From contig CANTFK010000478.1 of NCBI GenBank assembly GCA_947646735.1, positions 32,989-96,988 on the forward strand: a stretch of DNA of 64,000 bases, read 5' to 3'. Each line of letters begins with the position of its first letter. Position 1 is the first letter of the stretch. A program made the position numbers and the translations under genes. Source of the stretch: Peronospora farinosa (lineage: Eukaryota; Oomycota; Peronosporomycetes; Peronosporales; Peronosporaceae). This document shows positions 3,135 to 25,420 of the stretch, in pieces. The notes below the pieces were generated by a model. It saw nothing but the letters and a program-made list of their open reading frames with translations. It made no database searches and was not told where the DNA came from.

Positions 3135-5193
3135 TCGGCCCAGTCCCCGCTACCCAGTATTTCTGCGCGTTTCATGACTGCTTTTTTTGATACCAACGAG
3201 TTTAAGGAATTCATGGTTTCTCAGATCCGGTGAATACTTATCAAGCGAGCCACAAAGCTTCAACAAACTGCAATTCTTCACGGTTTGTCGACATGCGTGC
3301 TAGCTCTGCTTGAATTAGGCCTGCAACTCATCACGTTTGGACTCACACAACTTGCGGCTCTTTGACGCCTCTTGGATCCAAAATTGGTACAGAATGTTTG
3401 TTGTCATGTACCCTTCCTTCTCTTTACAGAGATACTCAAGCGCTTCGGCACGAGGTCCTTCCAGATGTGGGTTTTGCCATGGATTACTGCCTGATCTCAT
3501 TGACGGTTCGCCATCTGCACGCTTCTCATTCTGGTCTTCTTCGAGCCTGCGCAGGTTCACTTCGGCTCGACTATACCGCAGGCGTTGGCTTCAAGTGCCT
3601 TCTTACAGGCTCCTCTACAAGCTGGATCTACGTCCGTTGTGTTGATCACTGACCGCAAAGCATTCATTTCTGTCCAAAACGGCTCCATATCCTGCTGAAT
3701 AGCCTCCATGTTGCTACGTAACTTGGCTGTTTCTTCGTTGTGACTCTCGAAATTACCCTGTAGCACTTGCTCTTGAGTTTCGCCTGCAATTTCTCTACTT
3801 CCTTTTCCAACTCCGGCACTAGCTCTTCATTTTCCTGCACTTTTGCCCAAATTGTTCTTCTGTTTCTTTAGCTCTTTCTTCTGCGTTGACTGCAGCTCCT
3901 TCTGCTGTTCCTTGGCGTATTTTAGCTCTTCTCGCAACTTCGCTTCTTGCTTTTCAAAGTCAGCGTATTTCGACTTTGTCTCGTCCACTTGTTTGGCAAG
4001 CTCTTCACTCGTTGGTACAAAGCTTCAACAAACTGCAATTCTTCACGGTTTGTCGACATGCGTGCTAGCTCTGCTTGAATTAGGCCTGCAACTCATCACG
4101 TTTAGACTCACACAACTTGCGGTTCTTTGACGCCTCTTGGATCCAAAATTGGTACAGAATGTTTGTTGTCATGTACCCTTCCTTCTCTTTACAGAGATAC
4201 TCAAGCGCTTCGGCACGAAATCCTTCCAGATGTGGGTTTTGCCATGAATTACTGCCTGATCTCATTGACGGTTCGCCATCTGCACGCTTCTCATTCTGGT
4301 CTTCTTCGAGCCTGCGCAGGTTCACTTCGGCTCGACTATACCGCAGGCGTTGGCTTCAAGTGCCTTCTTACAGGCTCCTCTACAAGCTGGATCTACGTCC
4401 GTTGTGTTGATCACTGACCGCAAAGCATTCATTTCTGTCCAAAACGGCTCCATATCCTGCTGAATAGCCTCCATGTTGCTACGTAACTTGGCTGTTTCTT
4501 CGTTGTGACTCTCGAAAATACCCTGTAGCACTTGCTCTTGAGTTTCGCCTGCAATTTCTCTACTTCCTTTTCCAACTCCGGCACTAGCTCTTCATTTTCC
4601 TGCACTTTTGCCCAAATTGTTCTTCTGTTTCTTTAGCTCTTTCTTCTGCATTGACTGCAGCTCCTTCTGCTGTTCCTTGGCGTATGTTAGCTCTTCTCGC
4701 AACTTCGCTTCTTGCTTTTCAAAGTCAGCGTATTTCGACTTTGTCTCGTCCACTTGTTTGGCAAGCTCTTCACTCGTTGGTACAAAGCTTCAACAAACTG
4801 CAATTCTTCACGGTTTGTCGACATGCGTGCTAGCTCTGCTTGAATTAGGCCTGCAACTCATCACGTTTAGACTCACACAACTTGCGGTTCTTTGACGCCT
4901 CTTGGATCCAAAATTGGTACAGAATGTTTGTTGTCATGTACCCTTCCTTCTCTTTACAGAGATACTCAAGCGCTTCGGCACGAAATCCTTCCAGATGTGG
5001 GTTTTGCCATGAATTACTGCCTGATCTCATTGACGGTTCGCCATCTGCACGCTTCTCATTCTGGTCTTCTTCGAGCCTGCGCAGGTTCACTTCGGCTCGA
5101 CTATACCGCAGGCGTTGGCTTCAAGTGCCTTCTTACAGGCTCCTCTACAAGCTGGATCTACGTCCGTTGTGCTGATCACTGACCGCAAAGCAT

Positions 5194-5520
5194 TCATTTC
5201 TGTCCAAAACGGCTCCATATCCTGCTGAATAGCCTCCATGTTGCTACGTAACTTGGCTGTTTCTTCGTTGTGACTCTCGAAAATACCCTGTAGCACTTGC
5301 TCTTGAGTTTCGCCTGCAATTTCTCTACTTCCTTTTCCAACTCCGGCACTAGCTCTTCATTTTCCTGCACTTTTTGCCCAAATTGTTCTTCTGTTTCTTT
5401 AGCTCTTTCTTCTGCATTGACTGCAGCTCCTTCTGCTGTTCCTTGGGCGTATTTTAGCTCTTCTCGCAACTTCGCTTCTTGCTTTTCAAAGTCAGCGTAT
5501 TTCGACTTTGTCTCGTCCAC
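5194..5520 (-). pseudogene. copy 3 coiled-coil frame rejoined by a base insertion
   Basis: Copy 3 carries an extra G near 5445 ('ccttgggcg' where other copies have 'ccttggcg'). On the minus strand this joins two frames that are separate elsewhere, giving a 108-codon open stretch. It starts MDETKSKYADFEKQEAKLRE and continues through EERAKETEEQFGQKVQ and LVPELEKEVEKLQAKLK, then drifts into an unrelated frame and stops. The joined peptide has good heptad character, so this reading may approximate the ancestral protein. Either copy 3 keeps an older state or the insertion is a later compensating change or a sequencing error. Confidence 0.5.
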
Positions 5521-6377
5521 TTGTTTGGCAAGCTCTTCACTCGTTGGTACAAAGCTTCAACAGACTGCAATTCTTCACGGTTTTTCGACATGCGTGCTAG
5601 CTCTGCTTGAATTAGGCCTGCAACTCATCACGTTTAGACTCACACAACTTGCGGTTCTTTGACGCCTCTTGGATCCAAAATTGGTACAGAATGTTTGTTG
5701 TCATGTACCCTTCCTTCTCTTTACGGAGATACTCAAGCGCTTCGGCACGAGGTCCTTCCAGATGTGGGTTTTGCCATAAATTACTGCCTGATCTCATTGA
5801 CGGTTCGCCATCTGCACGCTTCTCATTCTGGTCTTCTTCGAGCCTGCGCAGGTTCACTTCGGCTCGACTATACCGCAGGCGTTGGCTTCAAGTGCCTTCT
5901 TACAGGCTCCTCTACAAGCTGGATCTACGTCCGTTGTGCTGATCACTGACCGCAAAGCATTCATTTCTGTCCAAAACGGCTCCATATCCTGCTGAATAGC
6001 CTCCATGTTGCTACGTAACTTGGCTGTTTCTTCGTTGTGACTCTCGAAAATACCCTGTAGCACTTGCTCTTGAGTTTCGCCTGCAATTTCTCTACTTCCT
6101 TTTCCAACTCCGGCACTAGCTCCTCATTTTCCTGCACTTTTTGCCCAAATTGTTCTTCTGTTTCTTTAGCTCTTTCTTCTGCATTGACTGCAGCTCCTTC
6201 TGCTGTTCCTTGGCGTATGTTAGCTCTTCTCGCAACTTCGCTTCTTGCTTTTCAAAGTCAGCGTATTTCGACTTTGTCTCGTCCACTTGTTTGGCAAGCT
6301 CTTCACTCGTTGGTACAAAGCTTCAACAAACTGCAATTCTTCACGGTTTGTCGACATGCGTGCTAGCTCTGCTTGAA

Positions 6378-6830
6378 TTAGGCCTGCAACTCATCACGTT
6401 TAGACTCACACAACTTGCGGTTCTTTGACGCCTCTTGGATCCAAAATTGGTACAGAATGTTTGTTGTCATGTACCCTTCCTTCTCTTTACGGAGATACTC
6501 AAGCGCTTCGGCACGAGGTCCTTCCAGATGTGGGTTTTGCCATGGATTACTGCCTGATCTCATTGACGGTTCGCCATCTGCACGCTTCTCATTCTGGTCT
6601 TCTTCGAGCCTGCGCAGGTTCACTTCAGGCTCGACTATACCGCAGGCGTTGGCTTCAAGTGCCTTCTTACAGGCTCCTCTACAAGCTGGATCTACGTCCG
6701 TTGTGCTGATCACTGACCGCAAAGCATTCATTTCTGTCCAAAACGGCTCCATATCCTGCTGAATAGCCTCCATGTTGCTACGTAACTTGGCTGTTTCTTC
6801 GTTGTGACTCTCGAAAATACCCTGTAGCAC
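6378..6830 (-). pseudogene. copy 5 frame of 150 codons rejoined by a base insertion
   Basis: Copy 5 has one extra base near 6626 ('cacttcaggctcg' against 'cacttcggctcg'). On the minus strand this fuses the 69-codon and 81-codon frames found separately in other copies into a single 150-codon frame. It starts MLQGIFESHNEETAKLRSN, passes VDPACRGACKKALEANACG, then RRLEEDQNEKRADGEPS and KNRKLCESKRDELQA, and ends at TAA. The N-terminal half is coiled-coil-like. The middle has three cysteines, in ACRGAC and ANAC. No known domain is recognised. The smooth join suggests that the parent gene was continuous here. Confidence 0.5.
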
Positions 6831-9800
6831 TTGCTCTTGAGTTTCGCCTGCAATTTCTCTACTTCCTTTTCCAACTCCGGCACTAGCTCTTTATTTTCGT
6901 GCACTTTTTGCCCAAATTGTTCTTCTGTTTCTTTAGCTCTTTCTTCTGCATTGACTGCAGCTCCTTCTGCTGTTCCTTGGCGTATTTTAGCTCTTCTCGC
7001 AACTTCGCTTCTTGCTTTTCAAAGTCAGCGTATTTCGACTTTGTCTCGTCCACTTGTTTGGCAAGCTCTTCACTCGTTGGTACAAAGCTTCAACAAACTG
7101 CAATTCTTCACGGTTTGTCGACATGCGTGCTAGCTCTGCTTGAATTAGGCCTGCAACTCATCACGTTTGGACTCACACAACTTGCGGTTCTTTGACGCCT
7201 CTTGGATCCAAAATTGGTACAGAATGTTTGTTGTCATGTACCCTTCCTTCTCTTTACGGAGATACTCAAGCGCTTCGGCACGAGGTCCTTCCAGATGTGG
7301 GTTTTGCCATGGATTACTGCCTGATCTCATTGACGGTTCGCCATCTGCACGCTTCTCATTCTGGTCTTCTTCGAGCCTGCGCAGGTTCACTTCGGCTCGA
7401 CTATACCGCAGGCGTTGGCTTCAAGTGCCTTCTTACAGGCTCCTCTACAAGCTGGATCTACGTCCGTTGTGTTGATCACTGACCGCAAAGCATTCATTTC
7501 TGTCCAAAACGGCTCCATATCCTGCTGAATAGCCTCCATGTTGCTACGTAACTTGGCTGTTTCTTCGTTGTGACTCTCGAAAATACCCTGTAGCACTTGC
7601 TCTTGAGTTTCGCCTGCAATTTCTCTACTTCCTTTTCCAACTCCGGCACTAGCTCTTCATTTTCCTGCACTTTTTGCCCAAATTGTTCTTCTGTTTCTTT
7701 AGCTCTTTCTTCTGCATTGACTGCAGCTCCTTCTGCTGTTCCTTGGCGTATTTTAGCTCTTCTCGCAACTTCGCTTCTTGCTTTTCAAAGTCAGCGTATT
7801 TCGACTTTGTCTCGTCCACTTGTTTGGCAAGCTCTTCACTCGTTGGTACAAAGCTTCAACAGACTGCAATTCTTCACGGTTTGTCGACATGCGTGCTAGC
7901 TCTGCTTGAATTAGGCCTGCAACTCATCACGTTTAGACTCACACAACTTGCGGTTCTTTGACGCCTCTTGGATCCAAAATTGGTACAGAATGTTTGTTGT
8001 CATGTACCCTTCCTTCTCTTTACAGAGATACTCAAGCGCTTCGGCACGAAATCCTTCCAGATGTGGGTTTTGCCATGGATTACTGCCTGATCTCATTGAC
8101 GGTTCGCCATCTGCACGCTTCTCATTCTGGTCTTCTTCGAGCCTGCGCAGGTTCACTTCGGCTCGACTATACCGCAGGCGTTGGCTTCAAGTGCCTTCTT
8201 ACAGGCTCCTCTACAAGCTGGATCTACGTCCGTTGTGTTGATCACTGACCGCAAAGCATTCATTTCTGTCCAAAACGGCTCCATATCCTGCTGAATAGCC
8301 TCCATGTTGCTACGTAACTTGGCTGTTTCTTCGTTGTGACTCTCGAAAATACCCTGTAGCACTTGCTCTTGAGTTTCGCCTGCAATTTCTCAACCTCCTT
8401 TTCCAATTCCGGCACTAGCTCCTCATTTTCCTGCACTTTTTGCCCAAATTGTTCTTCTGTTTCTTTAGCTCTTTCTTCTGCATTGACTGCAGCTCCTTCT
8501 GCTGTTCCTTGGCGTATTTTAGCTCTTCTCGCAACTTCGCTTCTTGCTTTTCAAAGTCAGCGTATTTCGACTTTGTCTCGTCCACTTGTTTGGCAAGCTC
8601 TTCACTCGTTGGTACAAAGCTTCAACAAACTGCAATTCTTCACGGTTTGTCGACATGCGTGCTAGCTCTGCTTGAATTAGGCCTGCAACTCATCACGTTT
8701 AGACTCACACAACTTGCGGTTCTTTGACGCCTCTTGGATCCAAAATTGGTACAGAATGTTTGTTGTCATGTACCCTTCCTTCTCTTTACAGAGATACTCA
8801 AGCGCTTCGGCACGAAATCCTTCCAGATGTGGGTTTTGCCATGGATTACTGCCTGATCTCATTGACGGTTCGCCATCTGCACGCTTCTCATTCTGGTCTT
8901 CTTCGAGCCTGCGCAGGTTCCCTTCGGCTCGACTATACCGCAGGCGTTGGCTTCAAGTGCCTTCTTACAGGCTCCTCTACAAGCTGGATCTACGTCCGTT
9001 GTGCTGATCACTGACCGCAAAGCATTCATTTCTGTCCAAAACGGCTCCATATCCTGCTGAATAGCCTCCATGTTGCTACGTAACTTGGCTGTTTCTTCGT
9101 TGTGACTCTCGAAAATACCCTGTAGCACTTGCTCTTGAGTTTCGCCTGCAATTTCTCAACCTCCTTTTCCAACTCCGGCACTAGCTCTTCATTTTCGTGC
9201 ACTTTTTGCCCAAATTGTTCTTCTGTTTCTTTAGCTCTTTCTTCTGCATTGACTGCAGCTCCTTCTGCTGTTCCTTGGCGTATTTTAGCTCTTCTCGCAA
9301 CTTCGCTTCTTGCTTTTCAAAGTCAGCGTATTTCGACTTTGTCTCGTCCACTTGTTTGGCAAGCTCTTCACTCGTTGGTACAAAGCTTCAACAAACTGCA
9401 ATTCTTCACGGTTTGTCGACATGCGTGCTAGCTCTGCTTGAATTAGGCCTGCAACTCATCACGTTTAGACTCACACAACTTGCGGTTCTTTGACGCCTCT
9501 TGGATCCAAAATTGGTACAGAATGTTTGTTGTCATGTACCCTTCCTTCTCTTTACAGAGATACTCAAGCGCTTCGGCACGAGGTCCTTCCAGATGTGGGT
9601 TTTGCCATGGATTACTGCCTGATCTCATTGACGGTTCGCCATCTGCACGCTTCTCATTCTGGTCTTCTTCGAGCCTGCGCAGGTTCACTTCGGCTCGACT
9701 ATACCGCAGGCGTTGGCTTCAAGTGCCTTCTTACAGGCTCCTCTACAAGCTGGATCTACGTCCGTTGTGCTGATCACTGACCGCAAAGCATTCATTTCTG

Positions 9801-12800
9801 TCCAAAACGGCTCCATATCCTGCTGAATAGCCTCCATGTTGCTACGTAACTTGGCTGTTTCTTCGTTGTGACTCTCGAAAATACCCTGTAGCACTTGCTC
9901 TTGAGTTTCGCCTGCAATTTCTCAACCTCCTTTTCCAACTCCGGCACTAGCTCCTCATTTTCCTGCACTTTTTGCCCAAATTGTTCTTCTGTTTCTTTAG
10001 CTCTTTCTTCTGCATTGACTGCAGCTCCTTCTGCTGTTCCTTGGCGTATTTTAGCTCTTCTCGCAACTTCGCTTCTTGCTTTTCAAAGTCAGCGTATTTC
10101 GACTTTGTCTCGTCCACTTGTTTGGCAAGCTCTTCACTCGTTGGTACAAAGCTTCAACAAACTGCAATTCTTCACGGTTTGTCGACATGCGTGCTAGCTC
10201 TGCTTGAATTAGGCCTGCAACTCATCACGTTTAGACTCACACAACTTGCGGTTCTTTGACGCCTCTTGGATCCAAAATTGGTACAGAATGTTTGTTGTCA
10301 TGTACCCTTCCTTCTCTTTACGGAGATACTCAAGCGCTTCGGCACGAGATCCTTCCAGATGTGGGTTTTGCCATGGATTACTGCCTGATCTCATTGACGG
10401 TTCGCCATCTGCACGCTTCTCATTCTGGTCTTCTTCGAGCCTGCGCAGGTTCACTTCGGCTCGACTATACCGCAGGCGTTGGCTTCAAGTGCCTTCTTAC
10501 AGGCTCCTCTACAAGCTGGATCTACGTCCGTTGTGTTGATCACTGACCGCAAAGCATTCATTTCTGTCCAAAACGGCTCCATATCCTGCTGAATAGCCTC
10601 CATGTTGCTACGTAACTTGGCTGTTTCTTCGTTGTGACTCTCGAAAATACCCTGTAGCACTTGCTCTTGAGTTTCGCCTGCAATTTCTCTACTTCCTTTT
10701 CCAACTCCGGCACTAGCTCCTCATTTTCGTGCACTTTTTGCCCAAATTGTTCTTCTGTTTCTTTAGCTCTTTCTTCTGCATTGACTGCAGCTCCTTCTGC
10801 TGTTCCTTGGCGTATTTTAGCTCTTCTCGCAACTTCGCTTCTTGCTTTTCAAAGTCAGCGTATTTCGACTTTGTCTCGTCCACTTGTTTGGCAAGCTCTT
10901 CACTCGTTGGTACAAAGCTTCAACAAACTGCAATTCTTCACGGTTTGTCGACATGCGTGCTAGCTCTGCTTGAATTAGGCCTGCAACTCATCACGTTTAG
11001 ACTCACACAACTTGCGGTTCTTTGACGCCTCTTGGATCCAAAATTGGTACAGAATGTTTGTTGTCATGTACCCTTCCTTCTCTTTACGGAGATACTCAAG
11101 CGCTTCGGCACGAAATCCTTCCAGATGTGGGTTTTGCCATGGATTACTGCCTGATCTCATTGACGGTTCGCCATCTGCACGCTTCTCATTCTGGTCTTCT
11201 TCGAGCCTGCGCAGGTTCACTTCGGCTCGACTATACCGCAGGCGTTGGCTTCAAGTGCCTTCTTACAGGCTCCTCTACAAGCTGGATCTACGTCCGTTGT
11301 GCTGATCACTGACCGCAAAGCATTCATTTCTGTCCAAAACGGCTCCATATCCTGCTGAATAGCCTCCATGTTGCTACGTAACTTGGCTGTTTCTTCGTTG
11401 TGACTCTCGAAAATACCCTGTAGCACTTGCTCTTGAGTTTCGCCTGCAATTTCTCAACCTCCTTTTCCAACTCCGGCACTAGCTCTTCATTTTCGTGCAC
11501 TTTTTGCCCAAATTGTTCTTCTGTTTCTTTAGCTCTTTCTTCTGCATTGACTGCAGCTCCTTCTGCTGTTCCTTGGCGTATTTTAGCTCTTCTCGCAACT
11601 TCGCTTCTTGCTTTTCAAAGTCAGCGTATTTCGACTTTGTCTCGTCCACTTGTTTGGCAAGCTCTTCACTCGTTGGTACAAAGCTTCAACAAACTGCAAT
11701 TCTTCACGGTTTGTCGACATGCGTGCTAGCTCTGCTTGAATTAGGCCTGCAACTCATCACGTTTAGACTCACACAACTTGCGGTTCTTTGACGCCTCTTG
11801 GATCCAAAATTGGTACAGAATGTTTGTTGTCATGTACCCTTCCTTCTCTTTACGGAGATACTCAAGCGCTTCGGCACGAGGTCCTTCCAGATGTGGGTTT
11901 TGCCATGGATTACTGCCTGATCTCATTGACGGTTCGCCATCTGCACGCTTCTCATTCTGGTCTTCTTCGAGCCTGCGCAGGTTCACTTCGGCTCGACTAT
12001 ACCGCAGGCGTTGGCTTCAAGTGCCTTCTTACAGGCTCCTCTACAAGCTGGATCTACGTCCGTTGTGCTGATCACTGACCGCAAAGCATTCATTTCTGTC
12101 CAAAACGGCTCCATATCCTGCTGAATAGCCTCCATGTTGCTACGTAACTTGGCTGTTTCTTCGTTGTGACTCTCGAAAATACCCTGTAGCACTTGCTCTT
12201 GAGTTTCGCCTGCAATTTCTCTACTTCCTTTTCCAACTCCGGCACTAGCTCCTCATTTTCGTGCACTTTTTGCCCAAATTGTTCTTCTGTTTCTTTAGCT
12301 CTTTCTTCTGCATTGACTGCAGCTCCTTCTGCTGTTCCTTGGCGTATTTTAGCTCTTCTCGCAACTTCGCTTCTTGCTTTTCAAAGTCAGCGTATTTCGA
12401 CTTTGTCTCGTCCACTTGTTTGGCAAGCTCTTCACTCGTTGGTACAAAGCTTCAACAAACTGCAATTCTTCACGGTTTGTCGACATGCGTGCTAGCTCTG
12501 CTTGAATTAGGCCTGCAACTCATCACGTTTAGACTCACACAACTTGCGGTTCTTTGACGCCTCTTGGATCCAAAATTGGTACAGAATGTTTGTTGTCATG
12601 TACCCTTCCTTCTCTTTACGGAGATACTCAAGCGCTTCGGCACGAGGTCCTTCCAGATGTGGGTTTTGCCATGGATTACTGCCTGATCTCATTGACGGTT
12701 CGCCATCTGCACGCTTCTCATTCTGGTCTTCTTCGAGCCTGCGCAGGTTCACTTCGGCTCGACTATACCGCAGGCGTTGGCTTCAAGTGCCTTCTTACAG

Positions 12801-14741
12801 GCTCCTCTACAAGCTGGATCTACGTCCGTTGTGCTGATCACTGACCGCAAAGCATTCATTTCTGTCCAAAACGGCTCCATATCCTGCTGAATAGCCTCCA
12901 TGTTGCTACGTAACTTGGCTGTTTCTTCGTTGTGACTCTCGAAAATACCCTGTAGCACTTGCTCTTGAGTTTCGCCTGCAATTTCTCTACTTCCTTTTCC
13001 AACTCCGGCACTAGCTCCTCATTTTCGTGCACTTTTTGCCCAAATTGTTCTTCTGTTTCTTTAGCTCTTTCTTCTGCATTGACTGCAGCTCCTTCTGCTG
13101 TTCCTTGGCGTATTTTAGCTCTTCTCGCAACTTCGCTTCTTGCTTTTCAAAGTCAGCGTATTTCGACTTTGTCTCGTCCACTTGTTTGGCAAGCTCTTCA
13201 CTCGTTGGTACAAAGCTTCAACAAACTGCAATTCTTCACGGTTTGTCGACATGCGTGCTAGCTCTGCTTGAATTAGGCCTGCAACTCATCACGTTTAGAC
13301 TCACACAACTTGCGGTTCTTTGACGCCTCTTGGATCCAAAATTGGTACAGAATGTTTGTTGTCATGTACCCTTCCTTCTCTTTACAGAGATACTCAAGCG
13401 CTTCGGCACGAAATCCTTCCAGATGTGGGTTTTGCCATGAATTACTGCCTGATCTCATTGACGGTTCGCCATCTGCACGCTTCTCATTCTGGTCTTCTTC
13501 GAGCCTGCGCAGGTTCACTTCGGCTCGACTATACCGCAGGCGTTGGCTTCAAGTGCCTTCTTACAGGCTCCTCTACAAGCTGGATCTACGTCCGTTGTGC
13601 TGATCACTGACCGCAAAGCATTCATTTCTGTCCAAAACGGCTCCATATCCTGCTGAATAGCCTCCATGTTGCTACGTAACTTGGCTGTTTCTTCGTTGTG
13701 ACTCTCGAAAATACCCTGTAGCACTTGCTCTTGAGTTTCGCCTGCAATTTCTCAACCTCCTTTTCCAACTCCGGCACTAGCTCTTCATTTTCGTGCACTT
13801 TTTGCCCAAATTGTTCTTCTGTTTCTTTAGCTCTTTCTTCTGCATTGACTGCAGCTCCTTCTGCTGTTCCTTGGCGTATTTTAGCTCTTCTCGCAACTTC
13901 GCTTCTTGCTTTTCAAAGTCAGCGTATTTCGACTTTGTCTCGTCCACTTGTTTGGCAAGCTCTTCACTCGTTGGTACAAAGCTTCAACAAACTGCAATTC
14001 TTCACGGTTTGTCGACATGCGTGCTAGCTCTGCTTGAATTAGGCCTGCAACTCATCACGTTTAGACTCACACAACTTGCGGTTCTTTGACGCCTCTTGGA
14101 TCCAAAATTGGTACAGAATGTTTGTTGTCATGTACCCTTCCTTCTCTTTACAGAGATACTCAAGCGCTTCGGCACGAAATCCTTCCAGATGTGGGTTTTG
14201 CCATGGATTACTGCCTGATCTCATTGACGGTTCGCCATCTGCACGCTTCTCATTCTGGTCTTCTTCGAGCCTGCGCAGGTTCACTTCGGCTCGACTATAC
14301 CGCAGGCGTTGGCTTCAAGTGCCTTCTTACAGGCTCCTCTACAAGCTGGATCTACGTCCGTTGTGCTGATCACTGACCGCAAAGCATTCATTTCTGTCCA
14401 AAACGGCTCCATATCCTGCTGAATAGCCTCCATGTTGCTACGTAACTTGGCTGTTTCTTCGTTGTGACTCTCGAAAATACCCTGTAGCACTTGCTCTTGA
14501 GTTTCGCCTGCAATTTCTCAACCTCCTTTTCCAACTCCGGCACTAGCTCTTCATTTTCGTGCACTTTTTGCCCAAATTGTTCTTCTGTTTCTTTAGCTCT
14601 TTCTTCTGCATTGACTGCAGCTCCTTCTGCTGTTCCTTGGCGTATTTTAGCTCTTCTCGCAACTTCGCTTCTTGCTTTTCAAAGTCAGCGTATTTCGACT
14701 TTGTCTCGTCCACTTGTTTGGCAAGCTCTTCACTCGTTGGT

Positions 14742-17700
14742 ACAAAGCTTCAACAAACTGCAATTCTTCACGGTTTGTCGACATGCGTGCTAGCTCTGCT
14801 TGAATTAGGCCTGCAACTCATCACGTTTAGACTCACACAACTTGCGGTTCTTTGACGCCTCTTGGATCCAAAATTGGTACAGAATGTTTGTTGTCATGTA
14901 CCCTTCCTTCTCTTTACGGAGATACTCAAGCGCTTCGGCACGAAATCCTTCCAGATGTGGGTTTTGCCATGGATTACTGCCTGATCTCATTGACGGTTCG
15001 CCATCTGCACGCTTCTCATTCTGGTCTTCTTCGAGCCTGCGCAGGTTCACTTCGGCTCGACTATACCGCAGGCGTTGGCTTCAAGTGCCTTCTTACAGGC
15101 TCCTCTACAAGCTGGATCTACGTCCGTTGTGTTGATCACTGACCGCAAAGCATTCATTTCTGTCCAAAACGGCTCCATATCCTGCTGAATAGCCTCCATG
15201 TTGCTACGTAACTTGGCTGTTTCTTCGTTGTGACTCTCGAAAATACCCTGTAGCACTTGCTCTTGAGTTTCGCCTGCAATTTCTCAACCTCCTTTTCCAA
15301 CTCCGGCACTAGCTCTTCATTTTCGTGCACTTTTTGCCCAAATTGTTCTTCTGTTTCTTTAGCTCTTTCTTCTGCATTGACTGCAGCTCCTTCTGCTGTT
15401 CCTTGGCGTATTTTAGCTCTTCTCGCAACTTCGCTTCTTGCTTTTCAAAGTCAGCGTATTTCGACTTTGTCTCGTCCACTTGTTTGGCAAGCTCTTCACT
15501 CGTTGGTACAAAGCTTCAACAAACTGCAATTCTTCACGGTTTGTCGACATGCGTGCTAGCTCTGCTTGAATTAGGCCTGCAACTCATCACGTTTAGACTC
15601 ACACAACTTGCGGTTCTTTGACGCCTCTTGGATCCAAAATTGGTACAGAATGTTTGTTGTCATGTACCCTTCCTTCTCTTTACAGAGATACTCAAGCGCT
15701 TCGGCACGAAATCCTTCCAGATGTGGGTTTTGCCATGGATTACTGCCTGATCTCATTGACGGTTCGCCATCTGCACGCTTCTCATTCTGGTCTTCTTCGA
15801 GCCTGCGCAGGTTCACTTCGGCTCGACTATACCGCAGGCGTTGGCTTCAAGTGCCTTCTTACAGGCTCCTCTACAAGCTGGATCTACGTCCGTTGTGCTG
15901 ATCACTGACCGCAAAGCATTCATTTCTGTCCAAAACGGCTCCATATCCTGCTGAATAGCCTCCATGTTGCTACGTAACTTGGCTGTTTCTTCGTTGTGAC
16001 TCTCGAAAATACCCTGTAGCACTTGCTCTTGAGTTTCGCCTGCAATTTCTCTACTTCCTTTTCCAACTCCGGCACTAGCTCCTCATTTTCGTGCACTTTT
16101 TGCCCAAATTGTTCTTCTGTTTCTTTAGCTCTTTCTTCTGCATTGACTGCAGCTCCTTCTGCTGTTCCTTGGCGTATTTTAGCTCTTCTCGCAACTTCGC
16201 TTCTTGCTTTTCAAAGTCAGCGTATTTCGACTTTGTCTCGTCCACTTGTTTGGCAAGCTCTTCACTCGTTGGTACAAAGCTTCAACAAACTGCAATTCTT
16301 CACGGTTTGTCGACATGCGTGCTAGCTCTGCTTGAATTAGGCCTGCAACTCATCACGTTTAGACTCACACAACTTGCGGTTCTTTGACGCCTCTTGGATC
16401 CAAAATTGGTACAGAATGTTTGTTGTCATGTACCCTTCCTTCTCTTTACGGAGATACTCAAGCGCTTCGGCACGAAATCCTTCCAGATGTGGGTTTTGCC
16501 ATGGATTACTGCCTGATCTCATTGACGGTTCGCCATCTGCACGCTTCTCATTCTGGTCTTCTTCGAGCCTGCGCAGGTTCACTTCGGCTCGACTATACCG
16601 CAGGCGTTGGCTTCAAGTGCCTTCTTACAGGCTCCTCTACAAGCTGGATCTACGTCCGTTGTGTTGATCACTGACCGCAAAGCATTCATTTCTGTCCAAA
16701 ACGGCTCCATATCCTGCTGAATAGCCTCCATGTTGCTACGTAACTTGGCTGTTTCTTCGTTGTGACTCTCGAAAATACCCTGTAGCACTTGCTCTTGAGT
16801 TTCGCCTGCAATTTCTCTACTTCCTTTTCCAACTCCGGCACTAGCTCCTCATTTTCGTGCACTTTTTGCCCAAATTGTTCTTCTGTTTCTTTAGCTCTTT
16901 CTTCTGCATTGACTGCAGCTCCTTCTGCTGTTCCTTGGCGTATTTTAGCTCTTCTCGCAACTTCGCTTCTTGCTTTTCAAAGTCAGCGTATTTCGACTTT
17001 GTCTCGTCCACTTGTTTGGCAAGCTCTTCACTCGTTGGTACAAAGCTTCAACAAACTGCAATTCTTCACGGTTTGTCGACATGCGTGCTAGCTCTGCTTG
17101 AATTAGGCCTGCAACTCATCACGTTTAGACTCACACAACTTGCGGTTCTTTGACGCCTCTTGGATCCAAAATTGGTACAGAATGTTTGTTGTCATGTACC
17201 CTTCCTTCTCTTTACAGAGATACTCAAGCGCTTCGGCACGAAATCCTTCCAGATGTGGGTTTTGCCATGGATTACTGCCTGATCTCATTGACGGTTCGCC
17301 ATCTGCACGCTTCTCATTCTGGTCTTCTTCGAGCCTGCGCAGGTTCACTTCGGCTCGACTATACCGCAGGCGTTGGCTTCAAGTGCCTTCTTACAGGCTC
17401 CTCTACAAGCTGGATCTACGTCCGTTGTGCTGATCACTGACCGCAAAGCATTCATTTCTGTCCAAAACGGCTCCATATCCTGCTGAATAGCCTCCATGTT
17501 GCTACGTAACTTGGCTGTTTCTTCGTTGTGACTCTCGAAAATACCCTGTAGCACTTGCTCTTGAGTTTCGCCTGCAATTTCTCTACTTCCTTTTCCAACT
17601 CCGGCACTAGCTCTTCATTTTCGTGCACTTTTTGCCCAAATTGTTCTTCTGTTTCTTTAGCTCTTTCTTCTGCATTGACTGCAGCTCCTTCTGCTGTTCC

Positions 17701-17805
17701 TTGGCGTATTTTAGCTCTTCTCGCAACTTCGCTTCTTGCTTTTCAAAGTCAGCGTATTTCGACTTTGTCTCGTCCACTTGTTTGGCAAGCTCTTCACTCG
17801 TTGGT
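14742..17805. repeat. alternating variants in macrosatellite copies 16-19
   Basis: Across copies 16, 17, 18 and 19 two sites alternate together: 'tttacggag' with 'gtgttgat' in copies 16 and 18, and 'tttacagag' with 'gtgctgat' in copies 17 and 19. This suggests a 1532-bp two-copy block that was itself duplicated. Other variant sites do not alternate, so later exchange or conversion has blurred the pattern. Confidence 0.55.
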
Positions 17806-20800
17806 ACAAAGCTTCAACAAACTGCAATTCTTCACGGTTTGTCGACATGCGTGCTAGCTCTGCTTGAATTAGGCCTGCAACTCATCACGTTTAGACTCAC
17901 ACAACTTGCGGTTCTTTGACGCCTCTTGGATCCAAAATTGGTACAGAATGTTTGTTGTCATGTACCCTTCCTTCTCTTTACAGAGATACTCAAGCGCTTC
18001 GGCACGAGGTCCTTCCAGATGTGGGTTTTGCCATGGATTACTGCCTGATCTCATTGACGGTTCGCCATCTGCACGCTTCTCATTCTGGTCTTCTTCGAGC
18101 CTGCGCAGGTTCACTTCGGCTCGACTATACCGCAGGCGTTGGCTTCAAGTGCCTTCTTACAGGCTCCTCTACAAGCTGGATCTACGTCCGTTGTGCTGAT
18201 CACTGACCGCAAAGCATTCATTTCTGTCCAAAACGGCTCCATATCCTGCTGAATAGCCTCCATGTTGCTACGTAACTTGGCTGTTTCTTCGTTGTGACTC
18301 TCGAAAATACCCTGTAGCACTTGCTCTTGAGTTTCGCCTGCAATTTCTCTACTTCCTTTTCCAACTCCGGCACTAGCTCTTCATTTTCGTGCACTTTTTG
18401 CCCAAATTGTTCTTCTGTTTCTTTAGCTCTTTCTTCTGCATTGACTGCAGCTCCTTCTGCTGTTCCTTGGCGTATTTTAGCTCTTCTCGCAACTTCGCTT
18501 CTTGCTTTTCAAAGTCAGCGTATTTCGACTTTGTCTCGTCCACTTGTTTGGCAAGCTCTTCACTCGTTGGTACAAAGCTTCAACAGACTGCAATTCTTCA
18601 CGGTTTGTCGACATGCGTGCTAGCTCTGCTTGAATTAGGCCTGCAACTCATCACGTTTAGACTCACACAACTTGCGGTTCTTTGACGCCTCTTGGATCCA
18701 AAATTGGTACAGAATGTTTGTTGTCATGTACCCTTCCTTCTCTTTACAGAGATACTCAAGCGCTTCGGCACGAAATCCTTCCAGATGTGGGTTTTGCCAT
18801 GGATTACTGCCTGATCTCATTGACGGTTCGCCATCTGCACGCTTCTCATTCTGGTCTTCTTCGAGCCTGCGCAGGTTCACTTCGGCTCGACTATACCGCA
18901 GGCGTTGGCTTCAAGTGCCTTCTTACAGGCTCCTCTACAAGCTGGATCTACGTCCGTTGTGCTGATCACTGACCGCAAAGCATTCATTTCTGTCCAAAAC
19001 GGCTCCATATCCTGCTGAATAGCCTCCATGTTGCTACGTAACTTGGCTGTTTCTTCGTTGTGACTCTCGAAAATACCCTGTAGCACTTGCTCTTGAGTTT
19101 CGCCTGCAATTTCTCTACTTCCTTTTCCAACTCCGGCACTAGCTCTTCATTTTCGTGCACTTTTTGCCCAAATTGTTCTTCTGTTTCTTTAGCTCTTTCT
19201 TCTGCATTGACTGCAGCTCCTTCTGCTGTTCCTTGGCGTATTTTAGCTCTTCTCGCAACTTCGCTTCTTGCTTTTCAAAGTCAGCGTATTTCGACTTTGT
19301 CTCGTCCACTTGTTTGGCAAGCTCTTCACTCGTTGGTACAAAGCTTCAACAAACTGCAATTCTTCACGGTTTGTCGACATGCGTGCTAGCTCTGCTTGAA
19401 TTAGGCCTGCAACTCATCACGTTTAGACTCACACAACTTGCGGTTCTTTGACGCCTCTTGGATCCAAAATTGGTACAGAATGTTTGTTGTCATGTACCCT
19501 TCCTTCTCTTTACAGAGATACTCAAGCGCTTCGGCACGAAATCCTTCCAGATGTGGGTTTTGCCATGGATTACTGCCTGATCTCATTGACGGTTCGCCAT
19601 CTGCACGCTTCTCATTCTGGTCTTCTTCGAGCCTGCGCAGGTTCACTTCGGCTCGACTATACCGCAGGCGTTGGCTTCAAGTGCCTTCTTACAGGCTCCT
19701 CTACAAGCTGGATCTACGTCCGTTGTGCTGATCACTGACCGCAAAGCATTCATTTCTGTCCAAAACGGCTCCATATCCTGCTGAATAGCCTCCATGTTGC
19801 TACGTAACTTGGCTGTTTCTTCGTTGTGACTCTCGAAAATACCCTGTAGCACTTGCTCTTGAGTTTCGCCTGCAATTTCTCTACTTCCTTTTCCAACTCC
19901 GGCACTAGCTCTTCATTTTCGTGCACTTTTTGCCCAAATTGTTCTTCTGTTTCTTTAGCTCTTTCTTCTGCATTGACTGCAGCTCCTTCTGCTGTTCCTT
20001 GGCGTATTTTAGCTCTTCTCGCAACTTCGCTTCTTGCTTTTCAAAGTCAGCGTATTTCGACTTTGTCTCGTCCACTTGTTTGGCAAGCTCTTCACTCGTT
20101 GGTACAAAGCTTCAACAAACTGCAATTCTTCACGGTTTGTCGACATGCGTGCTAGCTCTGCTTGAATTAGGCCTGCAACTCATCACGTTTAGACTCACAC
20201 AACTTGCGGTTCTTTGACGCCTCTTGGATCCAAAATTGGTACAGAATGTTTGTTGTCATGTACCCTTCCTTCTCTTTACAGAGATACTCAAGCGCTTCGG
20301 CACGAAGTCCTTCCAGATGTGGGTTTTGCCATGGATTACTGCCTGATCTCATTGACGGTTCGCCATCTGCACGCTTCTCATTCTGGTCTTCTTCGAGCCT
20401 GCGCAGGTTCACTTCGGCTCGACTATACCGCAGGCGTTGGCTTCAAGTGCCTTCTTACAGGCTCCTCTACAAGCTGGATCTACGTCCGTTGTGCTGATCA
20501 CTGACCGCAAAGCATTCATTTCTGTCCAAAACGGCTCCATATCCTGCTGAATAGCCTCCATGTTGCTACGTAACTTGGCTGTTTCTTCGTTGTGACTCTC
20601 GAAAATACCCTGTAGCACTTGCTCTTGAGTTTCGCCTGCAATTTCTCTACTTCCTTTTCCAACTCCGGCACTAGCTCTTCATTTTCGTGCACTTTTTGCC
20701 CAAATTGTTCTTCTGTTTCTTTAGCTCTTTCTTCTGCATTGACTGCAGCTCCTTCTGCTGTTCCTTGGCGTATTTTAGCTCTTCTCGCAACTTCGCTTCT

Positions 20801-20869
20801 TGCTTTTCAAAGTCAGCGTATTTCGACTTTGTCTCGTCCACTTGTTTGGCAAGCTCTTCACTCGTTGGT

Positions 20870-23167
20870 ACAAAGCTTCAACAGACTGCAATTCTTCACG
20901 GTTTGTCTACATGCGTGCTAGCTCTGCTTGAATTAGGCCTGCAACTCATCACGTTTAGACTCACACAACTTGCGGTTCTTTGACGCCTCTTGGATCCAAA
21001 ATTGGTACAGAATGTTTGTTGTCATGTACCCTTCCTTCTCTTTACAGAGATACTCAAGCGCTTCGGCACGAAATCCTTCCAGATGTGGGTTTTGCCATGG
21101 ATTACTGCCTGATCTCATTGACGGTTCGCCATCTGCACGCTTCTCATTCTGGTCTTCTTCGAGCCTGCGCAGGTTCACTTCGGCTCGACTATACCGCAGG
21201 CGTTGGCTTCAAGTGCCTTCTTACAGGCTCCTCTACAAGCTGGATCTACGTCCGTTGTGCTGATCACTGACCGCAAAGCATTCATTTCTGTCCAAAACGG
21301 CTCCATATCCTGCTGAATAGCCTCCATGTTGCTACGTAACTTGGCTGTTTCTTCTTTGTGACTCTCGAAAATACCCTGTAGCACTTGCTCTTGAGTTTCG
21401 CCTGCACTTTCTCTACTTCCTTTTCCAACTCCGGCACTAGCTCTTCATTTTCGTGCACTTTTTGCCCAAATTGTTCTTCTGTTTCTTTAGCTCTTTCTTC
21501 TGCATTGACTGCAGCTCCTTCTGCTGTTCCTTGGCGTATTTTAGCTCTTCTCGCAACTTCGCTTCTTGCTTTTCAAAGTCAGCGTATTTCGACTTTGTCT
21601 CGTCCACTTGTTTGGCAAGCTCTTCACTCGTTGGTACAAAGCTTCAACAAACTGCAATTCTTCACGGTTTGTCTACATGCGTGCTAGCTCTGCTTGAATT
21701 AGGCCTGCAACTCATCACGTTTAGACTCACACAACTTGCGGTTCTTTGACGCCTCTTGGATCCAAAATTGGTACAGAATGTTTGTTGTCATGTACCCTTC
21801 CTTCTCTTTACAGAGATACTCAAGCGCTTCGGCACAAAATCCTTCCAGATGTGGGTTTTGCCATGGATTACTGCCTGATCTCATTGACGGTTCGCCATCT
21901 GCACGCTTCTCATTCTGGTCTTCTTCGAGCCTGCGCAGGTTCACTTCGGCTCGACTATACCGCAGGCGTTGGCTTCAAGTGCCTTCTTACAGGCTCCTCT
22001 ACAAGCTGGATCTACGTCCGTTGTGCTGATCACTGACCGCAAAGCATTCATTTCTGTCCAAAACGGCTCCATATCCTGCTGAATAGCCTCCATGTTGCTA
22101 CGTAACTTGGCTGTTTCTTCTTTGTGACTCTCGAAAATACCCTGTAGCACTTGCTCTTGAGTTTCGCCTGCAATTTCTCAACCTCCTTTTCCAATTCCGG
22201 CACTAGCTCCTCATTTTCGTGCACTTTTTGCCCAAATTGTTCTTCTGTTTCTTTAGCTCTTTCTTCTGCATTGACTGCAGCTCCTTCTGCTGTTCCTTGG
22301 CGTATTTTAGCTCTTCTCGCAACTTCGCTTCTTGCTTTTCAAAGTCAGCGTATTTCGACTTTGTCTCGTCCACTTGTTTGGCAAGCTCTTCACTCGTTGG
22401 TACAAAGCTTCAACAAACTGCAATTCTTCACGGTTTGTCGACATGCGTGCTAGCTCTGCTTGAATTAGGCCTGCAACTCATCACGTTTAGACTCACACAA
22501 CTTGCGGTTCTTTGACGCCTCTTGGATCCAAAATTGGTACAGAATGTTTGTTGTCATGTACCCTTCCTTCTCTTTACAGAGATACTCAAGCGCTTCGGCA
22601 CAAAATCCTTCCAGATGTGGGTTTTGCCATGGATTACTGCCTGATCTCATTGACGGTTCGCCATCTGCACGCTTCTCATTCTGGTCTTCTTCGAGCCTGC
22701 GCAGGTTCACTTCGGCTCGACTATACCGCAGGCGTTGGCTTCAAGTGCCTTCTTACAGGCTCCTCTACAAGCTGGATCTACGTCCGTTGTGTTGATCACT
22801 GACCGCAAAGCATTCATTTCTGTCCAAAACGGCTCCATATCCTGCTGAATAGCCTCCATGTTGCTACGTAACTTGGCTGTTTCTTCGTTGTGACTCTCGA
22901 AAATACCCTGTAGCACTTGCTCTTGAGTTTCGCCTGCAATTTCTCTACTTCCTTTTCCAACTCCGGCACTAGCTCTTCATTTTCGTGCACTTTTTGCCCA
23001 AATTGTTCTTCTGTTTCTTTAGCTCTTTCTTCTGCATTGACTGCAGCTCCTTCTGCTGTTCCTTGGCGTATTTTAGCTCTTCTCGCAACTTCGCTTCTTG
23101 CTTTTCAAAGTCAGCGTATTTCGACTTTGTCTCGTCCACTTGTTTGGCAAGCTCTTCACTCGTTGGT
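20870..23167. repeat. macrosatellite copies 24-26 sharing private variants
   Basis: Three variants each occur in exactly two adjacent copies and nowhere else: 'gtttgtctacatg' near 20901 and 21667, 'ttcttctttgtg' near 21349 and 22115, and 'ggcacaaaatcc' near 21831 and 22597. Their staggered positions span more than one unit, so at least two local duplication or conversion events occurred at this end. Confidence 0.75.
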
Positions 23168-23378
23168 ACAAAGCTTCAACAAACTGCAATTCTTCACGGT
23201 TTGTCGACATGCGTGCTAGCTCTGCTTGAATTAGGCCTGCAACTCATCACGTTTAGACTCACACAACTTGCGGTTCTTTGACGCCTCTTGGATCCAAAAT
23301 TGGTACAGAATGTTTGTTGTCATGTACCCTTCCTTCTCTTTACAGAGATACTCAAGCGCTTCGGCACGAAATCCTTCC
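23168..23378. repeat. truncated last macrosatellite copy and right boundary
   Basis: Copy 27 follows the unit consensus for 211 bp and breaks off after 'cacgaaatccttcc' at 23378, where other copies continue 'agatgtggg'. The following sequence (tatcgcacatcg) is unique. No target-site duplication or terminal inverted repeat is visible at this edge. Confidence 0.9.
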
Positions 23379-23641
23379 TATCGCACATCGAAGGTGTCGG
23401 CTATAGGGGTACCCTTCTTTGGACCGGCGTTTGATTCTACAGTACAACTTGTCTAAAATGTTTCTGCACTTACTGATAACCTGTCTAATCTGCTAACCTA
23501 TGGTCAATCCCGAGAACGTCCATCCAATTAGTATAAAACTGCCGTATTTTGTAGCCTTTATTATCTTATAAAACCTTTTAGTGTCAGCTTAGACAGGTTC
23601 TTCTATACTATATACACTGCTGAGGCTTTGATTACACGTAA
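23379..23641. other. AT-richer unique spacer
   Basis: About 260 bp of unique, relatively AT-rich sequence between the truncated macrosatellite copy and the lysyl-tRNA synthetase remnant. TATA-like strings occur near 23532 and 23567, but nothing downstream is intact, so no promoter is called. No gene is seen. Confidence 0.7.
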
Positions 23642-24346
23642 GAAACTGCAACTCTTGCAGATGAAAAAGAATTGGACCCTACTGCCTATTTTTCAATCGT
23701 GTAAGTGAACTAGAAGGTGAACCCTTACCCTCACAAATTTCATGTATCCATTCCGTTACCTGAATTTCAAGAAAAATTTGGCAATGTAGAAGCTAGTAGC
23801 CATATCACTGAGACCGTCTAAGTTGCTGGTCGACTTGTCAACTTCGTAATAAACGTTCTTCTGGAGCGAAATTGGTCTTTTATGATCTTCGTACCGATGG
23901 AAAAAGCTTCAAATAATGTCGGACATTGGATCCGATGAAAATGACCAAGCTTCTATCAAAATCCACAGCATTTTACGTCGTGGAGATATCATAGGGGTCT
24001 AAGAGTACCCTGGTAAATTCAAAAGGGTGAATTGCCGTATCCATTTATCGCAACAATTGGTACTATTGTCTCCTTGTATGCACATGCTGTCAAAAAGTCA
24101 TACTGGACTCACTCTTCAACAGGACACACGGTATCGTCAAAGGTGATTGGATCTTATTATGAATGATGACACGCGTGGAGCATTTTCACTTGAGCCAAAA
24201 TCATAAACGCCATTCGTCGATTTTTGTGCGATAAGAACTTTTTGGAAGTTGAGACTCAAATGGTGTAAATGATTGTCGGAGGTGCTGCTGCAAAACCTTT
24301 TGTTACGTATCACAATGATCTGCACATGAACTTGTTTAACCGTTAA
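23642..24346 (+). pseudogene. decayed lysyl-tRNA synthetase fragment
   Basis: The family charges tRNA-Lys with lysine (class II aminoacyl-tRNA synthetase). Recognisable segments, in the right order for a eukaryotic cytosolic enzyme, are: DEKELDPTAYF (from 23660), NPYPHKFHVSIPLPEFQEKF, VAGRLVN then KRSSGAKLVFYDLRTDGKSF (anticodon-binding OB fold, 23822-23910), ILRRGDIIGV, LLSPCMHML, DTRYRQR-LDLIMNDDTRG, AKIINAIRRFL, FLEVET (class II motif 1) and GGAAAKPFVTYHNDLHMNL (24269-24337). The reading frame changes at least five times. In-frame stops include 23819, 24000, 24144 (replacing the Tyr of RQRYLDL) and 24266. The proline expected after EVET in motif 1 is CAA (Gln). About 235 codons are represented and the catalytic C-terminal half is absent. 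It is clearly non-functional. No intron is evident, which fits either a retrocopy or an intron-poor genome. Confidence 0.9.
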
Positions 24347-24378
24347 GTTTATGGAGAGCGTGCGTTTTCACCAGTGAA

Positions 24379-24600
24379 ATGCCCGTCATCCGTGCCAGCA
24401 TCGATGAGTTGCTCACGTTGATCCGCCTTCATGCTGTAACGTTCGTAGATGGCTTCAACCTCTCGGATCACATGTTGAACTCGACTCTCGACCGGTATGA
24501 CGGTAACGTATACGAGGCTCTGTAAAAGTCTGCGCAGTACGATCCTCTGAATCACTCGTCGGACAAGGTCGCGGTGTACGAGTTGCTACACCCGATTTGC
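24379..24600 (+). pseudogene. acyl-CoA oxidase C-terminal fragment
   Basis: The family catalyses the first, FAD-dependent step of peroxisomal fatty-acid beta-oxidation. The frame from 24379 reads [39 protein letters not shown], a TAA stop at 24523-24525, then KSAQYDPLNHSSDKVAVYEL and LHPI. The pattern L-R-x-x-A-V-x-x-V-D-x-F, then D-H-x-L-N-S-x-L-x-R-Y-D-G-N-V-Y, then D-P-L-N matches the conserved C-terminal end of acyl-CoA oxidases. About 73 codons are kept. The FAD-binding and catalytic parts are missing. The frame stays open to TAA at 24694-24696, but the sequence after LHPI is no longer family-like. It begins within about 35 bp of the end of the lysyl-tRNA synthetase remnant, on the same strand. 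Confidence 0.82.
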
Positions 24601-25089
24601 GTTGAAATATCACAGTCATGTCTGGAAGAGGTTGGTGTTAAAAAGAGCTTGGGTCGTCTACTTGAAAAACCAAGTACACACGAATTTCTACTGTAAGAAG
24701 CCACGATTTGTGCAATGCCATTTGCCACAACGTGCGAACTAACTTCAACATGGGCGATACAACGATCAAGTCACTGACAAGCGAATATTAGTGACCTTTC
24801 ATTATTAAATTTGCGTTGTGGCTTGCACCTCAAGATTGACTTGTCAGTGGCACTAAGCTCAGTGATAAAAGCGACTGAACTTGGGCTTTTCCCCTGAGCA
24901 ATCGACGGTGGCCACGGAGACTGGGTAGACGGTGAGGCCATACAAAATTTGACTTTTGGAGGGACTGAGACAATTACAAATAATAGCGACGTAGTAAGCG
25001 AAGCAGCAGCAGCAGCAGCACCCGGTCGATGTGGAATCCTGATGGGTAATGTCGGCTACACCATGTAAGGAGGAACATATCAATCAAAC
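24601..25089. other. unique spacer with short unassigned open frames
   Basis: Unique DNA after the acyl-CoA oxidase remnant. A plus-strand frame is open from 24898 to 25065 (56 codons, stop 25066-25068). It reads GDWVDGEAIQNLTFGGTET, then a run of six alanines encoded by the GCA microsatellite, then GRCGILMGNVGYTM. It has no early Met and matches nothing I know. The DNA around 24700-24790 has short open stretches on both strands, also unassigned. It may hold further decayed gene pieces. Confidence 0.6.
25002..25020. repeat. AGC trinucleotide microsatellite
   Basis: Six uninterrupted AGC units, then a final A. In the plus-strand frame that ends at 25068 they read as poly-Ala. On the minus strand one frame reads poly-Cys. 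Confidence 0.9.
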
Positions 25090-25373
25090 CTATTCCTCCT
25101 CGTTACTGTCTTCATCCTCGGTGTGCTCCTCCTTTTGCTCAAAGATTGCTTCGCCTCGGTCAGCAATCTTGCTCTTCTTTTGACGCTTCCAAGCGGGCAA
25201 ATCTGATTCATCCTCGAAAACACTCGCACTGTGTTCTTGCTCCGTGATGAAAGCTGTTTGGAGAGACGTGAGTTTTGCTTTACAGTATGTCTCTTCTTTG
25301 CGTTTTCTTCCAGCATTTTTCGCAGACCTCCAAGATGTTGGATAGCTGTCTCATACGCGCGCGTAATCGCCAC
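25090..25373 (-). pseudogene. C-terminal tail of the right-array coiled-coil gene
   Basis: On the minus strand the array runs out into non-repetitive coding-like sequence. One frame continues from the last repeat unit (DLQTQQFAVAITRAYETAIQ, then HLGGLRKMLEEN). A second frame, open from 25350 down to a TAG at 25090-25092 (86 codons), takes over near 25300. It reads KEETYCKAKLTSLQTAFITE, ESDLPAWKRQKKSKIAD and an acidic end, EEHTEDEDSNEEE. The basic patch (KRQKKSK) followed by an acidic tail is typical of a genuine C-terminus. The frame change implies at least one indel, so I call it a pseudogene fragment. It fixes the ancestral strand of the right array as minus and places the gene's 3' end here, with the body extending rightwards. 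The parent protein is not recognised. Confidence 0.6.
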
Positions 25374-25420
25374 GGCAAACTGCTGCGTCTGAAGATCCGC
25401 CGCCGCCGCGCGCTCAGAGC

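What the first reader, a model, noticed from the sequence alone, without database searches (positions are those of the whole stretch)
3252..23378. A macrosatellite made from a coiled-coil gene segment
Twenty-six copies of a 766-bp unit keep a minus-strand protein signal (heptad-like helices, EVEKLQAKLK, NEETAKLRSNMEAIQQDME), but the frame is interrupted at the same places in nearly all copies. The damage therefore came first and amplification later. The array consists of amplified pseudogene sequence rather than an expanded functional domain. A 766-bp unit is not a multiple of three, so no single frame could run through the array.
Basis: partly seen in the sequence, partly recalled or inferred. 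Interest (0 to 1): 0.75.

Follow-up and report, generated by a model that had tools for sequence, protein, structure and literature searches.

The report
Satellite DNA from dead SMC4 gene
A stretch of 26 near-identical DNA repeats in a downy mildew genome is an already broken copy of the chromosome-packing gene SMC4, fused to a scrap of a jumping gene and then copied over and over, so it is most likely junk-like satellite DNA whose birth can be read, not a working protein.

Summary
The array is real: window 3252-23378 holds 25 full 766-bp units plus 620-nt and 356-nt partials (26.28 units). The genome is, by inference, Peronospora farinosa. In each unit about 724 bp come from the N-terminal coiled coil of SMC4 (condensin). 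The only near-full-length SMC4 frame found in the assembly (contig C63) is open across the segment (252 codons, no stop). The other 42 bp are an antisense piece of a dispersed LINE-type retrotransposon. One non-repeated LINE|SMC4 pseudogene (C138:22857-23658) has the same fusion and 6 of the array's 7 frame-changing indels. All 55 complete segments in the three arrays found carry the 13-, 10-, 7- and 2-nt deletions. Variation among 57 copies is flat across codon positions (14/13/14). A P. effusa protein suggests that the pseudogene predates that species split. Most likely this is neutral satellite DNA. The closest working analogue is Drosophila Su(Ste). A small-RNA role on SMC4 is possible but untested. 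New member of a known kind.

The parts
3252..23378 (-). 766-bp tandem array, 26.28 units; sense strand of the SMC4-derived part is the minus strand
3252..3871 (-). partial unit (620 nt) at the left end; similarity to C138 ends at 3245, leaving 6 nt of other sequence before the array
16895..17660 (-). a unit identical to the majority sequence of the 25 full copies (copy c18)
17264..17305 (.). LINE-derived 42-nt piece inside that unit (minus-strand unit positions 356-397); the piece recurs through the array (26 found); antisense to the SMC4 part
   Evidence: reverse transcriptase domain RVT_1 in two fuller elements
6378..6830 (-). longest ORF listed in the array (150 aa); lies in copy 6170-6936, which has a 1-nt insertion
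23023..23378 (-). partial unit (356 nt) at the right end; this boundary is shared by the three arrays (C133:5871, C138:19885, window 23378)
23379..25399 (.). right flank, shared with the other two arrays (95% over about 1960 nt); a mosaic that holds gene fragments
24346..24706 (+). broken acyl-CoA oxidase fragment (a 48-aa piece matches PF01756, E 1.4e-15; the next 45-aa piece matches nothing; DNA 84% to C260:85495-85862)
25093..25345 (-). second, separate SMC4 fragment (C-terminal part of the gene), 91% to C63:130605-130859

Best explanation
The array is satellite DNA born from a dead gene copy. (1) An extra copy of SMC4 lost function through small indels, and a piece of a LINE retrotransposon, 5'-truncated as far as I can tell, came to lie against it in antisense (shown: C138 pseudogene; inferred: the truncation and the order of these two events). 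(2) A segment running from 42 nt inside the LINE to a point about 750 bp further on in the SMC4 coiled coil was joined head to tail, at a junction with 2 nt of microhomology (shown: the junction; inferred: end joining, a replication slip or a circular intermediate). (3) The unit was amplified to tens of copies beside the pseudogene remnant, probably by unequal crossing-over (inferred from mosaic variants and fewer differences in the middle of the array). (4) The array with its near flank was duplicated, giving three arrays and about 60 units in the assembly (arrays shown; duplication inferred; two could be haplotypes). It has no coding function, since no frame survives and no codon constraint is seen. 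Most likely it is neutral satellite DNA.
For: Parent: the 817-aa query from C63 matches solved SMC4 first (PDB 9f5w_B, E 9.3e-142; best SMC1 chain E 5.6e-31), carries Pfam SMC_N and SMC_hinge, and is 100% identical to a P. farinosa protein on a 155,544-bp contig, the length of C63. Of 70 places matched in the genome it is the only near-full-length one at SMC4-level identity; two other stop-free long matches, on C266, are only 23-25% identical. Damage first: the array differs from the parent by 7 frame-changing indels, 6 of them shared in place and size with the single-copy C138 pseudogene; of 73 substituted sites 52 are shared, 10 array-only and 11 pseudogene-only. Chimera: unit positions 356-403 match short stretches on 11 other contigs; the 8 fetched align with one another over more than a kilobase, and the two tested encode a reverse transcriptase domain. 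At C138 the same LINE|SMC4 junction stands once outside an array, with at least 1 kb of the element beyond it. No coding selection: 43 polymorphic columns in 57 copies, 14/13/14 at parental codon positions 1/2/3 and 2 in the LINE piece. Segment duplication: the near flank (first 1.15 kb) differs by 0.3-1.8% between arrays, like the arrays themselves, 0.8-1.1% on average.
Against: Transcription was not tested; public databases already name pieces of the array as predicted proteins. The array does not lie next to the LINE|SMC4 junction but about 3 kb away from it on C138, so an extra move is needed that I cannot reconstruct. At parental offset 657 the array and the C138 copy differ (a 10-nt deletion against a 24-nt insertion), so C138 is a sister of the true founder, not the founder. 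The LINE open frame that contains the unit's 42-nt piece matches no Pfam family; the element is named from its reverse transcriptase frames. The parent frame itself carries one single-base frame change further downstream in this assembly. C133 and C138 begin inside arrays, so true copy number is unknown.
Confidence: 0.9

Rival explanations
1. Small-RNA source: the array works like Drosophila Su(Ste). Transcripts from its frame-broken, transposon-bearing gene copies are cut into small RNAs that act on SMC4 or on its pseudogenes.
For: Similar anatomy to Su(Ste): tandem gene-derived repeats with frameshifts and a transposon in the unit (PMC7874207 passages). In an oomycete the PpSat satellites are covered by small RNAs (28-38 nt for PpSat1) while ordinary RNA libraries hold few reads (PMC7290008 section 12). 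124 of 4214 parental 21-mer positions occur exactly in the window's array, longest exact match 48 nt.
Against: No RNA data here. The LINE piece in the unit is 42 nt of coding sequence and no promoter is shown in it; in Su(Ste) the transposon supplies antisense start sites. A condensin-gene pseudogene on a grasshopper B chromosome is reported, by the paper's title, not to influence condensin genes (PMC5732253, search listing only).
Confidence: 0.08
2. Expanded functional coiled-coil gene, with the frame breaks removed as introns.
For: Five predicted protein models cover array DNA in public databases.
Against: The parent is one open frame across the segment (252 codons, 0 stops). The models choose mutually different introns in near-identical DNA. 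Variation is flat across codon positions. The breaks are deletions of 13, 10, 7, 2, 1 and 1 nt and an insertion of 2 nt relative to the parent.
Confidence: 0.02
3. Sequencing or assembly artefact: systematic base-call errors create the frame breaks, or the copies are a mis-assembly.
For: Two contigs begin inside arrays, and the parent has one single-base frame change absent from four pseudogene copies, so small errors in this assembly are possible.
Against: The larger indels are shared with a non-repeated pseudogene copy; a predicted P. effusa protein, P0127, shows the reading frame that the 13-nt deletion produces; 33 of 43 polymorphic columns are not singletons and variants are shared by scattered copies.
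Confidence: 0.03
4. Centromere or pericentromere repeat with a structural role.
For: Long satellite-rich contigs; a Copia-type element with an open frame of 918 aa on C138. Copia-like elements are enriched at most P. effusa centromeres (PMC11540230 passages).
Against: No chromatin or contact data here; in the capped lists array copies lie on two contigs only, few for all chromosomes unless the assembly lost them; the identity of the Copia family was not tested.
Confidence: 0.07

Closest known systems
Su(Ste) repeats of Drosophila melanogaster
   Same: Tandem repeats derived from a protein-coding gene, frame broken by point mutations and deletions, with a transposon in the unit (PMC7874207 passages).
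   Different: Parent is a testis kinase-subunit gene, not SMC4; Su(Ste) units are transcribed into piRNAs; here transcription and small RNAs are untested and the TE piece is 42 nt of LINE coding sequence.
PpSat1 and PpSat2 satellites of Phytophthora parasitica
   Same: Oomycete satellite DNA in long arrays (PMC7290008 abstract and section 12).
   Different: No gene origin is given in the parts I read; PpSat1 has homologues in other oomycetes. No sequence comparison was made here.
Satellites containing LINE ORF2 pieces (PROsat, Pvc 20, chicken HinfI)
   Same: A LINE coding piece inside a satellite unit (PMC9659126 passages).
   Different: Here the LINE piece is a small part and the bulk is a host housekeeping-gene fragment.
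B-chromosome gene-derived repeats (sbno2-B and simc1-B in Psalidodon; CAP-G in a grasshopper)
   Same: Truncated host-gene copies multiplied in repeat-rich DNA (PMC12758807 abstract); CAP-G is also a condensin subunit (PMC5732253, title and listing only).
   Different: No sign that C133 or C138 belong to an accessory chromosome; the LINE here matches many contigs, whereas the LINE, satellite and unknown repeats of P. effusa chromosome 18 are described as unique to it.

Membership tests
Satellite DNA | Many head-to-tail, near-identical units in long arrays | tested here: met
   26.28, 25.96 and 7.66 units in three arrays; mean pairwise divergence within arrays 0.68-1.23%
Satellite DNA | Non-coding | tested here: met
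   9, 10 and 10 stops in the three frames of the SMC4 part; flat codon-position variation 14/13/14; transcription not tested
Macrosatellite | Unit of about 1 kb or more (definition recalled) | tested here: not met
   Unit is 766 bp; satellite is the safer word
SMC4 pseudogene | Derived from SMC4 and frame-broken | tested here: met
   Parent named by PDB and Pfam matches; 7 frame-changing indels
SMC4 pseudogene | Processed (intron-less copy) or duplicated | not tested
   The amplified segment lies in one open frame of the parent, so it cannot tell the two apart
LINE (non-LTR retrotransposon) piece | Part of a dispersed element that encodes a reverse transcriptase | tested here: met
   Eight fetched loci align over more than 1 kb; RVT_1 E 1.4e-14 (L021) and 9.1e-13 (L020), no family for the frame that holds the 42-nt piece; assignment to non-LTR type rests on RVT_1 as against RVT_2 and on recall
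Su(Ste)-like silencing repeat | Antisense transcription and small RNAs against the parent gene | not testable with these tools
   No RNA data; only exact-match potential shown, 124 of 4214 21-mer positions
Expanded coding domain | Open frame through units under coding constraint | tested here: not met

The most novel reading that the evidence does not exclude
The array is an oomycete counterpart of Su(Ste): a transposon-tagged, frame-broken SMC4 array that yields small RNAs matching SMC4, so that a satellite born from a condensin gene tunes condensin, the machine that compacts such DNA.
Probability: 0.07. Interest if true: 0.88.

Novelty: new member of a known kind. Interest (0 to 1): 0.42.

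Why it matters
Origins of satellite DNA are usually lost because the founder decays. Here the parent gene, a non-repeated chimeric sister of the founder, the unit junction and three derived arrays sit in one assembly, so the steps (gene death, LINE fusion, tandem junction, amplification, segment duplication) can be read. It also warns annotators: at least five database protein clusters called unnamed products of P. farinosa are pieces of this satellite.

Tried and rejected
Early idea that single-base losses (sequencing error) made the frame breaks, because adding five bases would make the unit a multiple of three: dropped once the parent showed indels of 13, 10, 7, 2 and 1 nt, six of seven shared with a single-copy pseudogene. 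Early idea that the 48-bp dispersed match was a flanking direct repeat used for unequal crossing-over: dropped, because it is an internal piece of a longer element and the unit junction has only 2 nt of microhomology. Idea of homogenisation between arrays, because whole flanks of the window array and the others differ by 5% and the arrays by about 1%: dropped, because the flank nearest the array is as similar as the array itself. Idea that C133 and C138 belong to an accessory chromosome 18: not supported, since its repeats are described as unique to it, but not tested. Telomere-type repeats on C133 and C138: none with four patterns. Rfam and tRNA scans of the window: nothing. Pfam on a 156-aa peptide of the 121-bp array: nothing. 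No structure prediction was run. Papers on this array: none seen in what searches listed; the library is open-access only and several of these listings show a part of the papers that matched (15 of 1,117, 20 of 51, 15 of 357, 10 of 87, 12 of 20).
Full report
WHAT IS THERE. The window lies at C133:32989-96988 of a 46.85-Mb assembly in 274 contigs. I infer that the organism is Peronospora farinosa, a downy mildew: the SMC4 query from C63 is 100% identical to a P. farinosa protein on a 155,544-bp contig, the length of C63, and predicted P. farinosa proteins from the array come from contigs of 96,988 and 44,583 bp, the lengths of C133 and C138. The array fills 3252-23378: 25 full units and two partial ones. 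Two more arrays of the same unit were found, C133:1-5871 (7.66 units) and C138:1-19885 (25.96 units), about 45.9 kb and 60 units in all. The genome search scores only its best candidates (40 of 74), so other copies may exist.

PARENT. Beside the single-copy match on C63 runs an open frame of 978 aa. The first 817 aa of it carry Pfam SMC_N and SMC_hinge and match solved SMC4 chains far better than other SMC chains (E 9.3e-142 against 5.6e-31 for the best SMC1). Of 70 places in the genome that match this protein it is the only near-full-length one at high identity; two long stop-free matches on C266 are 23-25% identical and are taken as other SMC genes. It is the parent. One blemish: a single-base frame change near C63:130,450, downstream of the amplified segment, is absent from the four pseudogene copies that align across that place (C138, C133, C134 and C263), and the three orthologous proteins read run on there. 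The public model P0003 leaves out residues there. It may be a sequencing error.

THE UNIT IS A CHIMERA. Of 766 nt, 724 are SMC4 (756 nt in the parent), from the N-terminal coiled coil before the hinge. The other 42 (minus-strand unit positions 356-397) are not in SMC4; positions 356-403 match places on 11 other contigs listed. The 8 of these that I fetched align with one another over more than a kilobase, all 28 pairs. Open frames of two of them, L021 and L020, contain a reverse transcriptase domain (RVT_1), so the piece is from a LINE-type element, in antisense to SMC4; the frame that holds the 42-nt piece itself matches no Pfam family. On C138 the LINE|SMC4 junction occurs once outside an array, with at least 1 kb of the element beyond it. 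The repeat junction joins SMC4 to a point 42 nt inside the LINE with a 2-nt overlap.

ORDER OF EVENTS. Against the parent, the array has deletions of 1, 13, 7, 2, 10 and 1 nt and an insertion of 2 nt. The C138 single copy shares all but the 10-nt deletion, where it has a 24-nt insertion instead. Of 722 sites compared, 52 differences are shared, 10 are array-only and 11 are C138-only. The shared differences lie 17/11/24 on codon positions 1/2/3, a lean to third positions as expected if part of that divergence arose under coding constraint. So most of the damage predates the array. All 55 complete segments in the three arrays carry the 13-, 10-, 7- and 2-nt deletions, and 50 of 55 give one identical signature; the pairwise alignments of that call add one further 1-nt deletion and 1-nt insertion. 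In P. effusa the predicted protein P0127 reads through the frame that the 13-nt deletion makes and shows the residues of the LINE|SMC4 joint; a second protein, P0129, fits the deletion less clearly and does not show the joint. This is peptide evidence only, but it suggests that the pseudogene predates the split of the two species. Whether P. effusa has an array is unknown.

NO CODING CONSTRAINT. Forty-three polymorphic columns in 57 full copies fall 14/13/14 on parental codon positions 1/2/3, with 2 in the LINE piece. The frames of the SMC4 part contain 9, 10 and 10 stops. The parent is one open frame there, so old introns cannot explain the breaks. Five database proteins from the two array contigs splice near-identical DNA in five different ways.

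DYNAMICS. Copies near the left end differ most from the majority (3-10 differences in copies 1-8), copies 16-22 by 0-3, and one copy near the right end by 7. Variants are shared by scattered copies. Divergence tends to rise with separation, from 0.58% for neighbours to 0.97% at 20 units, though not steadily (0.58% at 8). This fits unequal crossing-over (inferred). The three arrays share one right boundary. Near flanks differ by 0.3-1.8% in the first 1.15 kb, as little as the arrays; beyond it the two comparisons with the window flank jump to 6-7%, and to a third in the last 57 nt, while C133-left and C138 stay close. Array plus near flank were therefore duplicated together recently, or two of the copies are alternate haplotypes, which I cannot tell. 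The flank is itself a mosaic with an acyl-CoA oxidase fragment and another SMC4 fragment.

FUNCTION. Most likely none. The most interesting alternative is a small-RNA role as in Su(Ste), whose repeats also carry frameshifts and a transposon (PMC7874207 passages). In an oomycete, satellites are covered by small RNAs (PMC7290008 section 12). The window's array offers exact 21-mers for 124 of 4214 parental positions. None of this shows activity.

KNOWN KINDS. Satellites from transposons, some with LINE coding pieces, and multiplied pseudogene copies are known. I saw no paper on this array in the searches named under Tried and rejected. It is a new, unusually readable member of a known kind.

Noticed in passing
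window 25400-64000 and 1-2090: Two further tandem arrays (121-bp and 85-bp units) flank the 766-bp array. The 121-bp unit matches the 85-bp arrays of C133 and C138 at 69-76%; by eye both show coiled-coil-like frames that shift by one base per unit. Relatives lie on C134, C135, C84 and C144. Their parent gene was not found, and Pfam gives nothing for one peptide.
   Followed up: partly
C63 near 130,450 (L016 about 440-460): The only near-full-length SMC4 frame found in the assembly has a single-base frame change absent from four pseudogene copies; possibly an assembly error.
   Followed up: partly
C138:21796-23658, C133:7779-8952, C134:5-793, C263:637739-638028, C36:140828-141211: Dispersed SMC4 fragments; the first four are close to C63 SMC4, C36 is a weaker match (73%) with two stops.
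   Followed up: partly
C138:40817-43570 (L027): Copia-type element with a 918-aa open frame; related sequence begins near C138:38962, where C138 and the window part company (window 3245). Whether it is the centromere-linked Copia family of oomycetes was not tested.
   Followed up: partly
public proteins P0123, P0124, P0125, P0128, P0130: Database protein models predicted from this satellite, with mutually inconsistent introns.
   Followed up: yes
P. effusa and P. farinosa literature: An accessory chromosome 18 with repeats of its own is described, and condensin II subunits seem to be absent in P. effusa (PMC11540230 passages and section 8); no link to C133 or C138 was shown.
   Followed up: no
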